A program made the position numbers and the translations under genes. A stretch of DNA of 64,000 nucleotides, from assembly GCA_002699025.1 (NCBI GenBank), contig PABA01000098.1, forward strand, positions 1 through 64,000. The letters run 5' to 3'. The notes beneath the pieces are model-generated. The model did not search any database, was not told the DNA's origin, and saw only the letters and a program-made list of their open reading frames with translations. This document shows positions 56,069 through 64,000 of this stretch, in pieces. This DNA is from Sandaracinus sp. (GTDB taxonomy: Bacteria; Myxococcota_A; Polyangia; Polyangiales; Houyiibacteriaceae). The stretch's first letter is position 1. Every line of letters starts with the position of its first letter.

Positions 56069-57523
56069 ATGGCGTCCGTTCGCCGCCTCCGCTCCAAGCT
56101 CAACGACGCGATCCGCAAGGGCAAGAAGGCCCAGGCGCTGGAGCTCTATGCCGCCCTCGAGGAGGCCGAGCCGACGGAGCCGCGCTGGCCGCATCGCCGC
56201 GGCGACCTCCTCCGGCGCATGGACCGCGATCAGGGGGCCATCGGCTGCTACATGCGCGCCGTCCGCGCCTACGCGGAGCTCGGCTTCGTCGCCCGCGCCG
56301 CCGCCCTCGCCAAGCTGATCGTCTCCATCGACCCCTCGCGCATCGACGTGCTCGCCCGCGTCGACCCCGAGGCCGCCCGGCGGCTCCATCGCGCGCAGCG
56401 GACCAGCGTCGCCGAGGCTCGGCCGGACGACGTCGAGGCCCCGAGAGCTGCCCGCGGGGAGAGTGCCGCCGCGGACGACGACGCGGCGCCCCCTCGTGAG
56501 CGCCGCCGCAAGAGCTTCGAGGCGGACGCCATCGCCCTCGCCCCCGCGGCGGACGCGGACGACGACGAAGTCCGCTTCGTGGACGTGGCCGAGGACGACG
56601 ACGGCATCGAGATCGAGATCACCGAGCTCGAGCTCGAGCCGCGCGAGGCCCCCGCGCGCACCACGCTGGAGCTCGACGCGGACGACCTCCTGATCCTCGA
56701 GGAGGACGAGGAGCCCGCGCGCCCGGCCGCCGACCGGCTCGCGCAGCTCCCGGCCATGCCCCTCTTCGCCGAGCTCCCGAAGGACGTCTTCAAGCGCCTC
56801 CTCGAGCTCTCCGAGCTGGTCGAGGTCCCGGCCGGCGAGACCCTGGTGGCCGCCGGCGATCCGAGCGACGCCCTCTACGTGCTCACGGAGGGGAGCGTCT
56901 CCGTGCACGTCCCCGGCCGCGCGGGCCCGCCGATCCTCCTCGGCGAGGGCGACGTGGTCGGCGAGAGCTGCCTCCTCGACGACGTCGCGCGCCGCGCGGA
57001 CGTGCGCGTCCCCGCCGGCGGCGTCCGCGCGCTGAAGCTCCCCAAGGCCATGCTCGACGCGCTCGTCACGGCCTACCCGCCGCTCGGCGACCTCCTCCTC
57101 GAGCTCCTCGCGCGGCGCCTCATCTCGAACCTCCTCGTCACCTCGCCGCTCTTCGCCGGCTTCGCGCCCGAGACGCGCAAGGAGCTCGCTTCGCTCTTCG
57201 AGCTCCGGCGCGCCGAGGAGGGCACGCGGCTGGTCGCCAAGGGCAAGCGGAGCGACGCGCTCTACTGCCTGCTCCTCGGCAAGCTCGAGGTGGAGACACC
57301 CGAAGACGTGCGCGTCGAGGTCGGCCCGGGCGCCGTGCTCGGTCAGCGCACGCTGCTCACCCAGGCGCCCTCGGAGGTCGAGGTCGACTGCAAGAGCGAC
57401 GCCCTCCTGCTCCGCCTCCCGGCCGCCCGCTTCACCGAGCTCGCGGCGCTCTACCCGACCGCCCTCGCCTACCTGAGCGAGCTCGCGACGCAGCCCGACT
57501 TCGTCGAGAGCGTCCTCCGATGA
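56069..57523 (+). CDS. Protein with TPR-like N-terminus and two cyclic-nucleotide-binding domains
   Basis: 484 aa. Residues 1-100 are helical and TPR-like (LNDAIRKGKKAQALELYAALEEAEP; DQGAIGCYMRAVRAYAELG). Residues 105-225 are an acidic low-complexity linker. Residues about 231-345 and 357-470 each follow the CAP_ED fold; the first contains PAGETLVAAGDPSDALYVLTEGSVSV and LGEGDVVGESCLLDD, where the cAMP-contacting Glu/Arg pair is only partly kept. No HTH follows, so it is not a CRP regulator; it resembles the tandem cNMP-binding proteins abundant in Myxococcota. The stop overlaps the GT2 gene (ATGA), so the two are co-translated. Confidence 0.87.
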   Translation: MASVRRLRSKLNDAIRKGKKAQALELYAALEEAEPTEPRWPHRRGDLLRRMDRDQGAIGCYMRAVRAYAELGFVARAAALAKLIVSIDPSRIDVLARVDPEAARRLHRAQRTSVAEARPDDVEAPRAARGESAAADDDAAPPRERRRKSFEADAIALAPAADADDDEVRFVDVAEDDDGIEIEITELELEPREAPARTTLELDADDLLILEEDEEPARPAADRLAQLPAMPLFAELPKDVFKRLLELSELVEVPAGETLVAAGDPSDALYVLTEGSVSVHVPGRAGPPILLGEGDVVGESCLLDDVARRADVRVPAGGVRALKLPKAMLDALVTAYPPLGDLLLELLARRLISNLLVTSPLFAGFAPETRKELASLFELRRAEEGTRLVAKGKRSDALYCLLLGKLEVETPEDVRVEVGPGAVLGQRTLLTQAPSEVEVDCKSDALLLRLPAARFTELAALYPTALAYLSELATQPDFVESVLR

Positions 57524-58545
57524 GCCCGGCGCGCCCCGCTCGCGCGCCCGAGGTCTCGGTCCTGCTCCCCTACCGCGACGCCGCGGAGACGCTGGGGGAG
57601 GCGCTCGAGAGCACGCTCGCGGACTCCTCGGCGCGGATCGAGCTCCTGGCGGTCGACGACGGCAGCGAGGACGCGGGGCCGGCGCTCGTGGCCGAGCTCG
57701 CCCGCCGCGACGCGCGCGTGCGCCCATCGCGCACCGGGGGCGTGGGCATCGTCGGCGCCCTCGAGCACGCCCGCCGCCAGGCCCGCGCCCCGCTCCTCGC
57801 GCGCATGGACGGCGACGACGTCACGCTCCCCGGCCGCTTCGGCGCGCAGCGGCGCGCCCTCGAGGCGAACGACCGGCTCGGCGCGGTCGGCGCGCGCGTG
57901 GAGGCCTTCGCGGAGGGCGGCGCGCTGGGGGGCGGGATGCGCGCCTACGTGGCCTGGCAGAACGGGCTCGAGGGGGCGCGCGCGCATCGGGACGCGCTCT
58001 TCGTCGAGGCGCCGCTCTGCCACCCCTCGACCATGATCCGCGCCGACGCGCTCGAGGCCGTGGGGGGCTACCGGCACGGCGACTTCCCGGAGGACTACGA
58101 GCTCTGGCTGCGCCTCGACGCGGGCGGCTGGGCGCTCGACAAGGTCGGGGAGCGGCTCGTGCGCTGGCGGCACACGGCGGGTCGGGCGACCTTCACGGAC
58201 CCGCGCTACCGGCCCGACGCGATGCGCGATGTGAAGGGGCCCTATCTGGCCGAGCGGCTCCGCGGGGAGGCGCGACCGCTCGCGGTCTGGGGCGCCGGGC
58301 GCACCGGGCGGCGGGCCATGCGGGCCTTCGAGGCGCATGGGCTCGCGGCGGCGAAGTGGGTGGACATCGATCCGCGGAAGATCGGACGGACGGCGCGCGG
58401 GGCGCCCATCGTCGGGCGGGAGGCGCTCACGCGGGACGAGTTCACGCTGGTGGCGGTCGGGGCGCGGGGCGCGCGGGACGAGGTGCGGCGCTGGCTCCTC
58501 GGGCGCGGCTTCGTCGAGGGCGACGACTTCCTCTGCGTGTCCTGA
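57520..58545 (+). CDS. Family 2 glycosyltransferase with a C-terminal Rossmann-like domain
   Basis: 341 aa. The GT-A domain (1-235) starts VSVLLPYRDAAETLGEAL, has VDDGSEDAG and MDGDD (metal/nucleotide-sugar site), and FPEDYELWLRL in the acceptor region. Residues 245-341 form an extra domain beginning LAVWGAGRTGRRAM, which looks like a nucleotide- or sugar-binding Rossmann segment (WVDIDPRKIGRTARGAPI). That combination is known in a subset of bacterial GT2 proteins. Donor and acceptor unknown. Translationally coupled to the cNMP-binding protein gene. Confidence 0.88.
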   Translation: MSPARPARAPEVSVLLPYRDAAETLGEALESTLADSSARIELLAVDDGSEDAGPALVAELARRDARVRPSRTGGVGIVGALEHARRQARAPLLARMDGDDVTLPGRFGAQRRALEANDRLGAVGARVEAFAEGGALGGGMRAYVAWQNGLEGARAHRDALFVEAPLCHPSTMIRADALEAVGGYRHGDFPEDYELWLRLDAGGWALDKVGERLVRWRHTAGRATFTDPRYRPDAMRDVKGPYLAERLRGEARPLAVWGAGRTGRRAMRAFEAHGLAAAKWVDIDPRKIGRTARGAPIVGREALTRDEFTLVAVGARGARDEVRRWLLGRGFVEGDDFLCVS

Positions 58546-58565
58546 CGGGTCCCTCGCTCCGGTTG

Positions 58566-59026
58566 GGATGCGGTCCGCCATCCGCTCTCCGCGGTCCGTG
58601 CTGGCGCTCGACTTCCGCGGTCCATGCCGCTCCGCGGAGGGGCCAGGGTGTGGGCTGCCGCGAGCTCGGATGGGGAGCCCGACCATCGCCTCACGATCCT
58701 CGAGCGCATCGTCCTCGTGCACGTGCACGTCGACGAGGACGAGGACGGCGAACGACACACGCGGAATCCTTCCTTCGGTCGGATGCGGTCCGCCGTCCGC
58801 TCTCCGCGGTCCGTGCTGGCGCTCGGCTTCCGCGGTCCATGCCGCTCCGCGGAGGGGCCAGGGTGGGGGCTGCCGCGAGCTCGGATGGGGAGCCCGACCA
58901 TCGCCTCACGATGCTCGAGTGCATCGTCCTCGTGCACGTGCACGTCGACGAGGGCGAGGACGGCGAACGACACACGCGGAATCCTTCCTTCGGTCGGATG
59001 CGGTCCGCCGTCCGCTCTCCGCGTGC
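58566..59026. repeat. 215-bp tandem repeat, two copies plus a partial third
   Basis: The landmark ggatgcggtccgcc starts at 58566, 58781 and 58996, exactly 215 bases apart. Copies 1 and 2 are very similar throughout, each including cacgtgcacgtcgacgag and ccgctccgcggagg. The period is not a multiple of 3. All long open frames that cross this array look like base-composition artefacts. The array lies between the GT2 gene and the small lipoprotein gene. Confidence 0.9.
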
Positions 59027-59083
59027 TGCTCGAAGAGGGTGGCTTGGAGGAGGGCTGCTCGGTGGAGGCTGCTCGGACGCCGC

Positions 59084-59350
59084 TCAGAAGCCGCCGTCGA
59101 AGCCCGCGCCGGGCCCTTCGATGCACGGCGCGTCGGCGCTGGGGCAGCCGGTGCAGGTGCCGCCCGTGCAGTCGTAGCCCTCGCAGCAGGGCGTCTCTTC
59201 GGAGCAAGCGACCCGGTCGTCGATGGAGCTCGGCGCCACGCACATCACGCTGCCCCCGTCGACGCCGCCGTCCCCGGTCTCCGCGCCGTCGTCGTCGCCG
59301 CAGCCGAGCGCGAGCGCGCCCACGAGAAAGAGCCAGCCGAGTCCACGCAT
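59084..59350 (-). CDS. Small Cys-rich lipoprotein
   Basis: 88 aa. Signal peptide MRGLGWLFLVGALALGC with a lipobox ending at Cys17, then GDDDGAETGDGG. The mature chain contains seven Cys in about 35 residues (CSEETPCCEGYDCTGGTCTGC), suggesting several disulfide bonds. No known domain. Divergent from the cytochrome c-NnrU gene with 76 bp between. Small lipoproteins of this composition are frequent in Myxococcota. Confidence 0.8.
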   Translation of the reverse strand: MRGLGWLFLVGALALGCGDDDGAETGDGGVDGGSVMCVAPSSIDDRVACSEETPCCEGYDCTGGTCTGCPSADAPCIEGPGAGFDGGF

Positions 59351-59426
59351 GGGGCAAGCCTACCAGGCCGCCCCCCCGCGCGGGCGTCCGTAACGGGCCC
59401 CGGCGTGTCCCGACGAAGGCCCCGAC

Positions 59427-60497
59427 GTGCGCCCCCTCGCGACGCTCTCCTTCGCCTTCGTCCTCGCGCTCAGCGCGCGCGCCGCTGCCGATCCCCCCGC
59501 CGACGAAGCCCTCTTCGAGCGCCACGGCTGCACCGCCTGCCACTCCCTCGACGGCGCCCCGCACCTCGGCCCCACGCTCGCCGGCCTCGCGGGCCGGGAG
59601 CGTCCGCTCGCCGACGGGACCACCGCCCGCGCCGACGCCGCTTACCTCCGCGCCGCCCTCCTGGCCCCGCGTCAGCAGGTCGTCCGCGGCTGGGAGGGCG
59701 TCCCCATGCCCGCCTACGGCCACCTCGAAGGCCCCGAGCTCGACCGGATCGTCGCCGCCATCCAGGCCCTCCCCTCCGTCGACGCCCCGCCGGAGAAGGC
59801 CCTCTGGCCCCTCGCCCTTTCCGTCGGGCTCTTCGTCCTGCTCCACTTCCTCCTCTCGTCGCGCCCGATCCGCGGCCCGCTCGCGCGCCGGCTCGGCGAG
59901 GGCGGCTTCATGGGCCTCTACGCGCTCGCCACCGGCGCCCCCTTCGCGGCCATCTTCTTCACCTGGGGCATGGCCCCCATCGTGCCCGTCTACACCCCGC
60001 CGAGCTGGGGCGCGCATCTCACGCTCACGCTCATGGCGGTCGCCTTCTTCTTCCTCGTCGCCGGCTTCACCACGCCCTCCCCGACGCTCGCGGGGATGCA
60101 GCGCCAGGTCGAGAACGCGCCCCGCGGCATCCTCACGGTCACGCGCCACCCGGGCCTCTGGGGCTTCGCGCTCTGGGCCGTCGCGCACCTCGTCGCGAAC
60201 GGGGACCTCCGCACTCTGGTGCTCGCGGGCGGCATCCTCGTCCTCGCGCTCGGCGGGATGGTGCACATCGATGCCCGACGTCAGCGCGAGCTCGGCGCGG
60301 ACTGGGAGCGCTTCGCCCGGCAGACCTCGCGCACGCCCTTCCTCGCCGTGCTCCGCGGGCGCACGCGGCTCGACGTGAGGGGCTGGGGCTGGCGCCTCCT
60401 CGTCGCGCTCGCGCTCACGGCCCTGGTCGCGCTCTTCCTGCACCGCTGGCTGATCGGCGTCCCCGCCCTGCCGCCCGGCTGGGCCCCCGCCTGGTAG
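59427..60497 (+). CDS. Cytochrome c - NnrU/Z-ISO-like membrane fusion protein
   Basis: 356 aa. A cleavable signal (1-22) precedes a c-type cytochrome domain of about 90 residues. It has the heme motif CTACH (Cys35, Cys38, His39) and a likely axial Met94 in GVPMPAYGHL; the sequence DAAYLRAALLAPRQQVV resembles the C-terminal cytochrome domain of caa3 oxidase subunit II. Residues 125-345 are a five- or six-helix NnrU-type domain with VTRHPGLWGFALWAVAHLV (His241, His254) and SWGAHLTL. NnrU relatives include denitrification proteins and the heme-dependent zeta-carotene isomerase. A fusion is unusual. It lies 23 bp upstream of the ether-lipid gene. Confidence 0.85.
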   Translation: MRPLATLSFAFVLALSARAAADPPADEALFERHGCTACHSLDGAPHLGPTLAGLAGRERPLADGTTARADAAYLRAALLAPRQQVVRGWEGVPMPAYGHLEGPELDRIVAAIQALPSVDAPPEKALWPLALSVGLFVLLHFLLSSRPIRGPLARRLGEGGFMGLYALATGAPFAAIFFTWGMAPIVPVYTPPSWGAHLTLTLMAVAFFFLVAGFTTPSPTLAGMQRQVENAPRGILTVTRHPGLWGFALWAVAHLVANGDLRTLVLAGGILVLALGGMVHIDARRQRELGADWERFARQTSRTPFLAVLRGRTRLDVRGWGWRLLVALALTALVALFLHRWLIGVPALPPGWAPAW

Positions 60498-60520
60498 CGC
60501 GAAGCGTGTACGCTCCGCCC

Positions 60521-62134
60521 ATGAGCGAGACGCGCGAGCGGAGCTTCTGGGGGTGGGGCTGGGCCGACCAGTTCCAGGATCGGGAGACGCGGAAGGGCTT
60601 CGGCCAGCAGGTGCAGGGCATGCTGGGCTTCGCGCCGCAGGAGGTGCTCGACCCGCCGGCGCTCGAGGCCATCGAGCTCGACGCGCCGCGCGCGAAGCCG
60701 CCGGCGAGCCTCGGCTTCTGCACGGACGCGCCGGAGGCCCGCATCCGCCACACCTACGGGCGGGCCTACCGCGACATCGTCCGTGGCTTCTACGGCGACT
60801 TCCGCGCCGCGCCCGATCTCGTCGCCACCCCTTCGTCCGAGGACGAGGTGCGCGCGGCGCTCGAGTGGGCGAGCGACGAGGGCGTCATCGTCGTGCCCTA
60901 CGGAGGCGGCACGAGCGTGGTCGGGGGCATCGAGATGGCGCGCGAGGAGGACGGTCGCGCCGTGCTCTCGCTCGACCTGAAGCGCCTCGACCGGGTGCTC
61001 GAGGTCGAGCCCGTCTCGCGGACGGCGCGCATCCAGGCTGGCGCCACCGGGCCCGTCCTCGAGCAGCAGCTCGCCGAGCACGGGCTCACGCTCCGCTGCT
61101 TCCCGCAGAGCTTCGAGTTCTCCACGCTCGGCGGCTGGCTCGCGACGCGCGCCGGCGGCCACTTCGCGACCGTCTACACGCACGTCGACGACCTGACGGC
61201 GTCCGTCCGGGCGCTCACGCCGCGCGGCCCCTGGGAGTCCTGGCGCCTCCCCGGCTCCGGCGCCGGCCCGAGCCCGGACCGCATGCTCCTCGGCTCCGAG
61301 GGCATCCTCGGCGTGATCACCGAGGCCTGGATGCGCGTGCGCCCGCGCCCCGTCTTCCGCGCGACGGCCACCGTGCACTTCCGCGAGTGGGACGACGCCG
61401 TGGCGGCCACGCGCGCGCTGAGCCAGTCCGGCCTCCACCCGACGAACTGCCGGCTCCTCGACCGGCGCGAGGCGGCGCTGAACTTCGTCACCGGCGACGG
61501 AACGCACGTGCTGATCCTCGGCTTCGAGGGCGCCGACCACCCGCTCGAGCCGTGGATGGTGCGCGCGCTGGAGCTCGCGGCGGACCACGGGGGGACCTGC
61601 CCGAAGGGGCCGGTCTACCGGGAGCATGGCGAGAAGAGCGGCGAGAGCGGGAGCGCGGGCGCGTGGAAGGCCGCGTTCGTGCAGGCGCCCTATCTGATGA
61701 ACGTGCTCGTGAGCCTCGGGCTGCTGGTCGACACCTTCGAGACGGCGATCCCCTGGGATCGCTTCGACGCGCTGCACGCGGACGTCGTGAAGAGCGTGCG
61801 GGGGGCGATGAAGGAGCACTGCGGCGGGGGCTTTCTGAGCTGCCGCTTCACGCACGTCTATCCGGACGGGCCGGCGCCCTACTTCACGTGGATCGCGCCG
61901 GCACGGCGGGGCGCCGAGGTCCGGCAGTGGGACGCGATCAAGGCCGCCGCCGGCGAGGCGCTCGCGCGGCACGGGGCGACGATCACGCACCACCACGCCG
62001 TCGGGCGGACGCACCGGCCCTGGTACGACCGGCAGCGGCCGGAGCCCTTCGCGATGGCGCTCCGGGCGGCGAAGCGCGAGCTCGACCCGGCGGGGATCCT
62101 CAACCCGGGCGTGCTGGTGGACCCGGAGGGCTGA
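60521..62134 (+). CDS. FAD-dependent alkyl-dihydroxyacetone-phosphate-synthase-like oxidase
   Basis: 537 aa. FAD_binding_4 (PP-loop) fold: VVPYGGGTSVVGG (124-136) for the pyrophosphate of FAD, then PQSFEFSTLGGWLATRAGGH and YTHVDDLTASV, both characteristic of alkylglycerone-phosphate synthase (AGPS). The C-terminal motif HHHAVGRTHRPW (490-501) contains the active-site His cluster of AGPS. AGPS replaces the acyl group of acyl-DHAP with a fatty alcohol to start ether-lipid synthesis, and myxobacteria make ether lipids. ATG at 60521, 23 bp after the cytochrome c-NnrU gene. The acyl-DHAP synthase partner is not in the window. Longer in-frame reading upstream is a shadow of the previous gene. Confidence 0.88.
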   Translation: MSETRERSFWGWGWADQFQDRETRKGFGQQVQGMLGFAPQEVLDPPALEAIELDAPRAKPPASLGFCTDAPEARIRHTYGRAYRDIVRGFYGDFRAAPDLVATPSSEDEVRAALEWASDEGVIVVPYGGGTSVVGGIEMAREEDGRAVLSLDLKRLDRVLEVEPVSRTARIQAGATGPVLEQQLAEHGLTLRCFPQSFEFSTLGGWLATRAGGHFATVYTHVDDLTASVRALTPRGPWESWRLPGSGAGPSPDRMLLGSEGILGVITEAWMRVRPRPVFRATATVHFREWDDAVAATRALSQSGLHPTNCRLLDRREAALNFVTGDGTHVLILGFEGADHPLEPWMVRALELAADHGGTCPKGPVYREHGEKSGESGSAGAWKAAFVQAPYLMNVLVSLGLLVDTFETAIPWDRFDALHADVVKSVRGAMKEHCGGGFLSCRFTHVYPDGPAPYFTWIAPARRGAEVRQWDAIKAAAGEALARHGATITHHHAVGRTHRPWYDRQRPEPFAMALRAAKRELDPAGILNPGVLVDPEG

Positions 62135-62206
62135 GGGCTGAGGGCTGAGGGTCTGCGCATCCTCGCCGCGTCGTGCGCGGGCACGGACGGGAAGCTGGCC
62201 GGCGCG

Positions 62207-62458
62207 TCAGTCGGCCAGGGACTCGAGGTAGAGCCGGTCCTCGCGGCGGAGGTTGATCATCCGCATGCGCACGCGGAAGCGGTCGTCCTCCTGGCGCTTG
62301 CTGCCGAGGCTCTTGGCCTGCAGGGCGCGGCCATCGACCTCGAGGGCGAGGGGCGCGCCGGGAGCGAAGGGCGCCGGCGAGACCACCTCCAGTACGCCCT
62401 TGTCGAACGCGACGAAGGCGCCCTCCCCCTCCGCGATACGGACCGCGGGCGCGCTCAT
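62207..62458 (-). CDS. Small hypothetical protein, possibly PilZ-like
   Basis: 83 aa. The chain is beta-rich: VRIAEGEGAFVAFDKGVLEVVSP, LALEVDGRALQAKSLGSK, then DRFRVRMRMINLRREDRLYLESL. The last segment loosely recalls the end of PilZ domains, but the RxxxR and DxSxxG c-di-GMP motifs are not visible, so this label is weak. The ATG overlaps the smpB stop (ATGA), indicating co-translation with smpB. Confidence 0.6.
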   Translation of the reverse strand: MSAPAVRIAEGEGAFVAFDKGVLEVVSPAPFAPGAPLALEVDGRALQAKSLGSKRQEDDRFRVRMRMINLRREDRLYLESLAD

Positions 62459-62940
62459 CGCCGCCTCATCGCGTCGCGGGCCTCCCGGAGATCCTGCTTG
62501 CGCCGGATGCTCTCGCGGTCGTCGTGGAGCTTCTTGCCCTTGCCGAGGCCGAGCTGGATCTTGGCGACGCCGTTCTTGAAGTAGACCTGCAGCGGGACGA
62601 GCGTGTAGCCGCGCGTCGTCAGGCGCCCGCGCAGCTTCTCGATCTCGCGCTTGTGGGCGAGCAGCTTCCGGGAGCGCTTGGGCTCGTGGTTGTTGTGCTT
62701 GCCGCCCTGCTCGTAGGGGGCGATGTGCATCTTGTGCAGGAAGAGCTCGCCGTCGTGGACGTCGGCGTAGGACCCCTCGAGATCGGCGCGGCGCTGGCGG
62801 AGGCTCTTCACCTCCGAGCCCTGCAGCACCATCCCGCACTCGATCGTCTCCTCGATCTCGTAGCGCTTGGCCGCCTTGGGGTTTCGGCACACGAGGAGCT
62901 CCATCCCCGGCACCCCCTTGTCGACGCGCTTCTTGCTCAT
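62455..62940 (-). CDS. smpB: SsrA-binding protein
   Basis: 161 aa, the normal SmpB length. Binds tmRNA and delivers it to stalled ribosomes. RNPKAAKRYEIEETIECGMVLQGSEVKSLR and ADVHDGELFLHKMHIAPYE are diagnostic; the C-terminal helix (KGKKLHDDRESIRRKQDLREAR) that enters the mRNA channel is complete. ATG at 62940. The tmRNA gene itself was not recognised near it. Confidence 0.97.
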   Translation of the reverse strand: MSKKRVDKGVPGMELLVCRNPKAAKRYEIEETIECGMVLQGSEVKSLRQRRADLEGSYADVHDGELFLHKMHIAPYEQGGKHNNHEPKRSRKLLAHKREIEKLRGRLTTRGYTLVPLQVYFKNGVAKIQLGLGKGKKLHDDRESIRRKQDLREARDAMRRR

Positions 62941-63010
62941 GGACCGTCCGAAGTAGCACGGATGCCCGCGCCGCGCCCCGCCCCATGAGCTCGGGGCGCG
63001 GGTCCAGCCC

Positions 63011-64000
63011 TCAGCGCCCCTCGGCCTCGCCGGACCGCGGCAGCACGCCGGCCCCCGCCCCCTCGACCACGGCGTCCGGGCCCGCCGGATTCCCGGCGGG
63101 AGCGCCCTCGGCGGCGTCTTCCTCCCGCATCGGCACGGCGTCCCGCCAGCCCCGCGCCACGAAGGCCCGCGCGTGCTCCCGGGCGAGCTGCGCGCCGGGC
63201 GCGAGCTCGAGGCCGGCGAAGGCGCCGTCGAAGGCCGCGAGCTGCGCGTCCCCGTCGGCGCCGCGCACCCACGCCAGCGCCGCGAGCTCGACGGCCAGCC
63301 GATGCACGGCGTCGTGGTCGCCGCCCTGCCGCGCCTCCTCGAGCGCCGCCCGCCGCCCTCGCTCCTCGTCCCGGTAGAAGGCCGCGCTCGCCGGCCCGAC
63401 GCGGGCCCAGCCCTCGCCCCCGAAGAGGAGAGCCACCGCCGGCGCCGTGCCCCGCGCCAACTCGGGAAAGCGCACGACGACGAGCGCCTCCGGCCGAGCG
63501 TCCCCGACCACGTCCCGGAGCCCTTCGACGCAGGGCTCTCCGCCGAGCCCCTCCTCCACGGGCGTGACCTCGCGGAGCGCCCCGCCCGCCTCGACCCGCA
63601 GGAGCGCCACGCAACGCCGCGCCGCCGCCACGTCGACCGCGTAGAGGGCGACCTCCGGCCGACCGTCGCCGTCCGGGTCGCTCGGCTCGACCTCGAGGAG
63701 CCCCACCTCCGCGCGATCGAGCCCCTCCGTGGGCGCCGAGACGGCGAGCGCCACCCCCCGCTCGGTGATGACCCGGACGAGCGTCTCCCCTTCGCGCCCC
63801 ATCGCGAACGCGCTCACGCCGGGGGCCTCCACGCGTGCGCGGAGCGTGAAGCCGTCCTCCGCGAAGCGCGCACGGAGGGCCGCCGCCTCCTGCGCCGGGT
63901 CGAGGCCGACCCGCAGGTACACCGTCGGGTCGTAGGGCGGCGGCGACTCGCGCGCGCAGGCCGCCAGCGCCAGGACGAGCGCGAGGGGCGCGAGCGGTTG
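63011..64000 (-). CDS. Hypothetical lipoprotein, 5' end beyond the window
   Basis: Partial gene, at least 330 codons. The frame stays open to the edge of the window, and the last bases encode LAPLALVLALAAC, an apparent lipobox signal peptide, so only the first few codons are missing. An internal GTG at 63922 is therefore not the start. The mature part is unrecognised: mixed alpha/beta with EVGLLEVEPSDPDGDGRPEVALYAV in the middle, similar to FG-GAP/VCBS-like calcium-repeat style DPDGDG motifs, although only one such unit is present. Located on the same strand as smpB, 70 bp away. Confidence 0.78.
   Translation of the reverse strand, partial: QPLAPLALVLALAACARESPPPYDPTVYLRVGLDPAQEAAALRARFAEDGFTLRARVEAPGVSAFAMGREGETLVRVITERGVALAVSAPTEGLDRAEVGLLEVEPSDPDGDGRPEVALYAVDVAAARRCVALLRVEAGGALREVTPVEEGLGGEPCVEGLRDVVGDARPEALVVVRFPELARGTAPAVALLFGGEGWARVGPASAAFYRDEERGRRAALEEARQGGDHDAVHRLAVELAALAWVRGADGDAQLAAFDGAFAGLELAPGAQLAREHARAFVARGWRDAVPMREEDAAEGAPAGNPAGPDAVVEGAGAGVLPRSGEAEGR

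What the first reader, a model, noticed from the sequence alone, without database searches (positions are those of the whole stretch)
59427..60497. Cytochrome c fused to an NnrU/Z-ISO-like membrane domain
A single CTACH heme domain that looks like the oxidase-subunit-II cytochrome is joined to an NnrU-type domain, whose relatives bind heme b and isomerise zeta-carotene or act in NO metabolism. The fusion suggests electrons being passed from a periplasmic c-heme to a membrane heme. It lies 23 bp upstream of an ether-lipid synthase gene.
Basis: partly seen in the sequence, partly recalled or inferred. Interest (0 to 1): 0.68.

Follow-up and report, generated by a model that had tools for sequence, protein, structure and literature searches.

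The report
Cytochrome c fused to NnrU protein
This gene makes a heme-carrying electron-transfer protein fused to a membrane enzyme related to the plant carotenoid isomerase; the same fusion recurs across the bacterial phylum Myxococcota, which suggests that this poorly understood enzyme family is wired to an electron-transport chain, although its reaction is still unknown.

Summary
One ORF (59427-60497, +) encodes a signal peptide, a CoxB-type monoheme cytochrome c (CTACH, axial Met94) and a complete NnrU domain. It is no sequencing accident: I recovered 20 distinct full-length fusions across Myxococcota, and none in 349 Pseudomonadota genomes or 239 plasmid NnrU hits. All 20 keep CxxCH and a Met. 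The residues matching the proposed heme-b ligands of Z-ISO (H254, H339) and its essential His (H140) are invariant in all 45 NnrU domains aligned. The NnrU model resembles steroid reductases and ICMT. Both candidate heme ligands sit near the periplasmic helix ends, under the cytochrome. Electron exchange between c-heme and a membrane heme b is the best reading, but heme b is untested. Carotenoid and denitrification roles are not supported: no zeta-carotene desaturase in 21 genomes, the Z-ISO Cys/Ser positions are Ala here, nitrite reductase in 3 of 21. The ether-lipid (AGPS) neighbour is real, but relatives show GT2 directly beside AGPS, so the fusion was inserted later; a different, short NnrU does sit upstream of AGPS in another genus. 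New domain architecture of a known family; interest moderate.

The parts
59427..60497 (+). cytochrome c-NnrU fusion gene, 356 aa, GTG start
   Evidence: 20 full-length fusion proteins in all
59427..59492 (+). signal peptide region, residues 1-22 (hydrophobic 3-21, ARAAA before DPP)
   Evidence: hydropathy; helix 4-18 in model; inference
59490..59774 (+). CoxB-type cytochrome c domain, residues 22-116
   Evidence: PDB profile match 1w2l 5.8e-19; Z 14.9
59529..59543 (+). CTACH heme c attachment site, residues 35-39
   Evidence: CxxCH in 20 of 20 fusions
59706..59708 (+). Met94, axial heme c ligand (MP motif)
   Evidence: Met conserved in 20 of 20 fusions
59805..60464 (+). NnrU membrane domain, residues 127-346, six membrane helices
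   Evidence: PF07298 2.6e-45; model pLDDT 96.3
59844..59846 (+). His140, equivalent of essential Z-ISO His150
   Evidence: invariant in 45 of 45 NnrU domains
59922..59924 (+). Ala166, at the position matching Z-ISO Ser177 (Ser in 41 of 45)
   Evidence: Z-ISO residue from PMC9505123
60144..60152 (+). Arg240-His241-Pro242 motif (Z-ISO R252-H253)
   Evidence: R and H invariant in 45 of 45
60186..60188 (+). His254, candidate heme b ligand (Z-ISO H266)
   Evidence: invariant in 45 of 45; numbering offset 12, same as for R252, H253 and D294
60441..60443 (+). His339, candidate second heme b ligand (Z-ISO H354)
   Evidence: invariant in 45 of 45
60521..62134 (+). AGPS-like alkyldihydroxyacetonephosphate synthase, 23 bp downstream (neighbour)
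   Evidence: ancestral neighbour of GT2, not of the fusion
57520..58545 (+). GT2 glycosyltransferase, ancestral upstream neighbour of AGPS
58546..60520 (.). insert between GT2 and AGPS: 215-bp tandem repeat, small ORF on the minus strand, fusion gene
   Evidence: GT2 and AGPS abut in G007 and G034

Best explanation
The protein is exported so that a His/Met c-heme sits in the periplasm, held by a short linker to the six-helix NnrU domain. That domain most likely holds a bis-His heme b between H254 and H339 near its periplasmic face. The c-heme is a built-in electron port: it exchanges electrons between the respiratory chain (a soluble cytochrome c or a caa3-type oxidase) and this heme b. The redox state of heme b drives or gates a reaction on a hydrophobic (lipid or isoprenoid) substrate in the bundle, around H140, R240 and H241. 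Shown: domains, conserved ligands, recurrence, predicted topology. Inferred: heme b, electron transfer, its direction. Unknown: the substrate.
For: Recurrent fusion in nine family-level groups. CxxCH and a Met kept in 20 of 20, and the distance from that Met to His140 is 43-52 residues in 18 of 20. H140, R240, H241, H254 and H339 invariant in 45 of 45 NnrU domains. The pair H266/H354 is the heme b site proposed for Z-ISO from models, docking and mutants (PMC9505123). In the model H254 (helix 242-258) and H339 (helix 318-343) are each four residues from the helix end that positive-inside charges place in the periplasm; H140 is near the cytoplasmic end of helix 127-144. Closest folds are membrane steroid reductases and ICMT, which act on lipids; the match stops at residue 307, so the helix bearing H339 lies outside the part aligned to them.
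Against: No heme b was or could be measured. No coordinates were available, so the H254-H339 distance is untested here. The ligand assignment in Z-ISO is itself disputed (H150/H266 was proposed first). 28 of the 45 NnrU domains do without a fused cytochrome, and no cytochrome c gene adjoins the alphaproteobacterial singles.
Confidence: 0.45

Rival explanations
1. The NnrU domain has no heme b; it is a steroid-reductase/ICMT-like membrane enzyme using a nucleotide cofactor on the cytoplasmic side, and the cytochrome c only anchors it to, or senses, the respiratory chain.
For: The top five structural matches are sterol reductase 4quv, steroid 5-alpha-reductases 7bw1 and 7c83, and ICMTs 4a2n and 5v7p, which use NADPH or SAM (own knowledge); the RHP motif is invariant in the fusions and also found in ICMT (own knowledge).
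Against: H254 and H339 are invariant in 45 of 45 and lie on the side away from a cytoplasmic cofactor site; the one biochemically studied NnrU-family enzyme, Z-ISO, contains heme b (PMC9505123, PMC8622272). Z values of 7-10 are modest for helical bundles.
Confidence: 0.2
2. Ether-lipid enzyme: the fusion acts with the AGPS next door, for example oxidising or isomerising an alkyl-ether lipid.
For: Same strand, 23 bp apart. A different, short NnrU lies just upstream of AGPS in three genomes of another genus, so the pairing arose at least twice; 48 of 282 genomes have both families, and roughly 0.01 such pairs would be expected by chance (my own rough estimate).
Against: In G007 and G034 GT2 abuts AGPS directly in the same gene order, so the fusion was inserted later. 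Other fusions have unrelated neighbours. G106, G134, G151, G181 and G226 carry the fusion but no AGPS hit at 1e-60.
Confidence: 0.12
3. Nitric-oxide or denitrification protein, as for classical NnrU.
For: Family name and NO-induced nnrU in rhizobia (PMC4064527); a short NnrU in G247 is followed by an NnrS-like ORF, judged by eye.
Against: Cu nitrite reductase over cut-off in only 3 of 21 genomes, not in the window's. The NirS search had no ringing control, so it says nothing.
Confidence: 0.1
4. A zeta-carotene isomerase (Z-ISO) with its own redox switch.
For: Same family; Z-ISO activity depends on reduced heme b (PMC8622272); H150, H266, H354 and D294 equivalents present.
Against: No zeta-carotene desaturase in 21 genomes while the control cyanobacterium rings; CrtI-type desaturase over cut-off in 17 of 21 and not in four genomes that have the fusion; Cys263 position is Ala, Gly or Ser in 45 of 45 and the Ser177 position is Ala here.
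Confidence: 0.05
5. Chance or neutral fusion without shared function.
For: The cytochrome half is variable in sequence; a broken copy exists in G039.
Against: Heme c ligands kept in 20 of 20 fusions across nine family-level groups, with identities of only about 35-43% to the window.
Confidence: 0.08

Closest known systems
NnrU family (PF07298), including stand-alone alphaproteobacterial NnrU
   Same: Complete domain, same invariant residues; the window domain is up to 53% identical to a Kiloniellales NnrU
   Different: Those have no cytochrome; their neighbours include folD and argG
[quoted passage not shown]
   Same: Equivalents of H150, R252, H253, H266, D294 and H354
   Different: No Cys263 or Ser177 equivalent; no poly-cis carotene pathway; extra periplasmic cytochrome c
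caa3-type cytochrome oxidase subunit II (CoxB), cytochrome c domain (PDB 1w2l)
   Same: Cytochrome c fold and sequence
   Different: No CuA domain and no helical hairpin; attached to NnrU instead
ICMT, steroid 5-alpha-reductase and delta14-sterol reductase fold
   Same: Predicted core fold (Z about 7-10), lipid-acting membrane enzymes
   Different: Extra C-terminal helix with H339; low sequence identity (9-15%)

Membership tests
NnrU (PF07298) | match to the curated model over its length | tested here: met
   154.8 bits against cut-off 24.7, profile 2-187 of 188
NnrU (PF07298) | tie to denitrification or NO metabolism | tested here: inconclusive
   NirK absent from the own genome and from 18 of 21 at the cut-off; NirS search uninformative
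Z-ISO | His150, His266 and His354 equivalents | tested here: met
   H140, H254, H339 invariant; mapped by numbering offset and motif, no Z-ISO sequence aligned
Z-ISO | Cys263 alternate ligand and Ser177 | tested here: not met
   A251 and A166
Z-ISO | zeta-carotene pathway (ZDS) in the genome | tested here: not met
   0 of 21 genomes, control rings
Z-ISO | heme b and isomerase activity | not testable with these tools
   needs purified protein
Class I cytochrome c (CoxB type) | CxxCH, axial Met and cytochrome c fold | tested here: met
CoxB (oxidase subunit II) | CuA cupredoxin domain and TM hairpin | tested here: not met
   only Cytochrom_C and NnrU over the Pfam cut-offs; single domain before the NnrU helices
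ICMT/steroid reductase fold | shared membrane fold | tested here: inconclusive
   Z 9.2, 8.2, 7.7, 7.0, 6.8 for 4quv, 7bw1, 7c83, 4a2n, 5v7p, ahead of unrelated chains but below the helical-bundle threshold
AGPS (neighbour gene) | closer to AGPS than to other FAD oxidases | tested here: met
   2uuu 1.4e-68 versus 7.2e-24 for glycolate oxidase

The most novel reading that the evidence does not exclude
NnrU proteins are a general class of heme-b membrane lipid oxidoreductases wired to periplasmic cytochromes, and in Myxococcota this enzyme modifies ether lipids or other membrane lipids in response to respiratory redox state; the cytochrome fusion may even have arisen more than once (a single origin is not rejected, AU p 0.365).
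Probability: 0.15. Interest if true: 0.75.

Novelty: new variant of a known kind. Interest (0 to 1): 0.45.

Why it matters
The NnrU family is widespread, but outside plant and cyanobacterial Z-ISO its chemistry is unknown. A conserved fusion to an electron-transfer domain is a direct clue that the family exchanges electrons at the periplasmic face, and it gives a single-gene test object. The conserved residues name the mutants to make. The open dispute over which histidines bind heme b in Z-ISO (H150/H266 or H266/H354) becomes testable in a protein where a second heme should sit within electron-transfer distance.

Tried and rejected
An ether-lipid operon as an ancestral unit: rejected by the gene order in G007 and G034, though a second NnrU-AGPS pair in another genus keeps a weak lead. 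A split-partner idea (stand-alone 139-aa cytochrome in G007 as partner of its stand-alone NnrU): that cytochrome lies on another contig beside a glycosyltransferase-like ORF and groups with a CoxB-like copy of the own genome; no support. Cytochrome genes beside alphaproteobacterial NnrU: none found; the CxxCH hits of type CRFCH lie in what look like radical-SAM RlmN proteins. One or several fusion events: the NnrU tree puts the window with Reyranella-type singles (89/87) and the cytochrome tree puts it on the CoxB side (98/89), but one origin is not rejected. Foldseek alone gave no significant NnrU match. The first 8-row alignment was too diverse for the collection scan. The NirS search had no ringing control. 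No Rfam family in 58300-64000. Papers: NnrU with cytochrome c and fusion returned three, none evidently about this architecture from title and abstract; NnrU with myxobacteria returned none. The Beltran et al. 2015 paper was not held, nor could I list InterPro architectures, so prior mention in databases is not excluded.

Full report
OBSERVATION. The ORF at 59427-60497 (+) encodes 356 residues from a GTG with a GAAGG motif just upstream. Residues 1-22 look like a signal peptide. Residues 22-116 are a monoheme cytochrome c with CTACH (35-39) and Met94, and residues 127-346 are a complete NnrU domain (PF07298, E 2.6e-45; PF00034, E 6.6e-4). A profile of eight fusions finds 1w2l, the cytochrome c domain of caa3 oxidase subunit II, as best solved relative (E 5.8e-19, next 1.4e-10), and the structure model agrees (Z 14.9). 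Stop 60497 and ATG 60521 leave 23 bp before an AGPS-like gene, whose best solved relatives are AGPS (2uuu, E 1.4e-68).

IS THE FUSION REAL AND RECURRENT? Yes. The profile of 13 fusions (A4) matched over its full length in 17 of 377 genomes of the window's phylum, in nine family-level groups (f1, f3, f12, f14, f23, f27, f36, f38, f62), while 75 of 377 had some NnrU-type match at 1e-25. A second collection added three: Labilithrix (L071) and two Sandaracinaceae (L070, L074), making 20 distinct fusion proteins. The named relatives point to phylum Myxococcota. None of 33 NnrU-positive genomes among 349 Pseudomonadota had the fusion, nor did any of 239 plasmid records. A broken copy, with the cytochrome start and the NnrU end in different frames, lies in G039; it may be an assembly error.

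EVOLUTION. On the NnrU-domain tree the fusions are clustered (4 changes against 17.7 in shuffles) but are not one clade; the window groups with Reyranella-type alphaproteobacterial NnrU at 89/87. On the cytochrome tree the other 19 fusions are separated from the window plus the CoxB-type cytochromes at 98/89. A single origin is not rejected (AU p 0.365). One old fusion and several are both open.

ANATOMY AND HEME SITES. CxxCH and an axial-type Met are present in 20 of 20 fusions. Counted from the Met of the MP-type motif, the distance to H140 is 43-52 residues in 18 of 20 and 55 and 65 in the other two (contexts; where the script took a later Met I counted from the motif). In 45 NnrU domains, fused or not, H140, R240, H241, H254 and H339 are invariant. 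Work on Z-ISO names H150 and H266 as the only histidines needed in the maize enzyme and C263 as a possible alternate ligand; AlphaFold models, docking and spectra of mutants then suggested H266/H354 as the heme b ligands and H150/S177 as a possible catalytic pair (PMC9505123). R252, H253, H266 and D294 map to R240, H241, H254 and D282 at a constant offset of 12; H354 maps to H339 and H150 to H140. This mapping rests on motifs and numbering; I had no Z-ISO sequence to align. At the C263 position all 45 have Ala, Gly or Ser, and at the S177 position the window has Ala where 41 of 45 have Ser. H280 is invariant in the 17 fusions of that alignment but present in only 12 of 28 singles.

STRUCTURE. 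The full model has pLDDT 86.8, the NnrU domain alone 96.3. Foldseek gives no significant match for NnrU. The second-look aligner puts five members of one known fold first: sterol reductase 4quv (Z 9.2), steroid 5-alpha-reductases 7bw1 (8.2) and 7c83 (7.7), ICMT 4a2n (7.0) and 5v7p (6.8). These values are modest for helical proteins, but the set is coherent and stands ahead of unrelated chains. The matches end at residue 307, so the last helix (318-343), which carries H339, is outside the aligned part. With the cytochrome exported, and Arg-rich loops 146-155, 226-240 and 284-323 inside, H254 and H339 come to lie about four residues from the periplasmic ends of their helices, and H140 near the cytoplasmic end of its helix. 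This is inference from secondary structure and charge; no coordinates were available.

MECHANISM. I take the cytochrome c as an electron port to a bis-His heme b under it, which drives or gates a reaction on a hydrophobic substrate deeper in the bundle. Shown: domain order, ligand conservation, recurrence, predicted topology. Inferred: heme b, electron exchange and direction, lipid-type substrate. In Z-ISO the heme must be reduced for activity (PMC8622272), so gating is as possible as turnover.

PATHWAY TESTS. In 21 genomes (20 handles with the fusion plus G007), none has zeta-carotene desaturase while the cyanobacterial control rings. Seventeen have a CrtI-family desaturase over the cut-off; the four without are G374 (96% complete), G064 (97%), G226 (80%) and G403 (completeness not given). 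Cu nitrite reductase is over cut-off in three and absent from the window's genome. A carotenoid or denitrification role is therefore not supported, though NO handling in general is not excluded.

NEIGHBOURHOOD. The window order is cNMP-binding protein, GT2, [insert with 215-bp tandem repeat, small minus-strand ORF, fusion], AGPS, SmpB. In G007 (same family) and G034 (another family of the order) the same genes occur but GT2 lies directly beside AGPS. The fusion is thus best read as a later insertion, and its place beside AGPS is not ancestral. Other fusions share no neighbour with it, and five fusion genomes lack an AGPS hit at 1e-60. Against a complete dismissal, a short NnrU of a different subfamily lies directly upstream of AGPS in G061, G314 and G270, one genus. 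By my rough estimate about 0.01 such pairs would be expected among the 48 genomes with both families. The link stays a weak lead.

VERDICT. A real, recurrent and, as far as I could find, undescribed domain architecture of a known family, with a testable electron-transfer hypothesis and an unknown substrate. The paper searches returned no description of it that I could see, but architecture databases could not be searched.

Noticed in passing
58566-59023: 215-bp tandem repeat (2.1 copies, 97% identical) with a palindrome-like core; about 95 related matches in the whole genome, so a dispersed intergenic repeat family.
   Followed up: partly
58546-60520: Insert of about 2 kb between GT2 and AGPS, which abut in relatives; holds the repeat, a small cysteine-rich lipoprotein-like ORF on the minus strand (59084-59350) and the fusion.
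   Followed up: yes
L106 1848-4136, L107 1866-4146, L108 1660-2579: Short NnrU gene directly upstream of AGPS in three genomes of another genus of the phylum, an independent NnrU-AGPS pairing.
   Followed up: partly
L049, downstream of the NnrU ORF ending at 2052: Short NnrU followed by an ORF that looks like NnrS, judged by eye only.
   Followed up: no
L005 and L110 (G039): Copy of the fusion with a large internal deletion and frame change; pseudogene or assembly error.
   Followed up: no
L076-L095 (alphaproteobacterial loci): Stand-alone NnrU commonly near folD and argG in Kiloniellales-type genomes, with no cytochrome c gene beside it.
   Followed up: partly
60264-60266 (His280 of the window protein): His280 is invariant in 17 of 17 fusions but found in only 12 of 28 single NnrU domains; it may matter for the fused form.
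   Followed up: no
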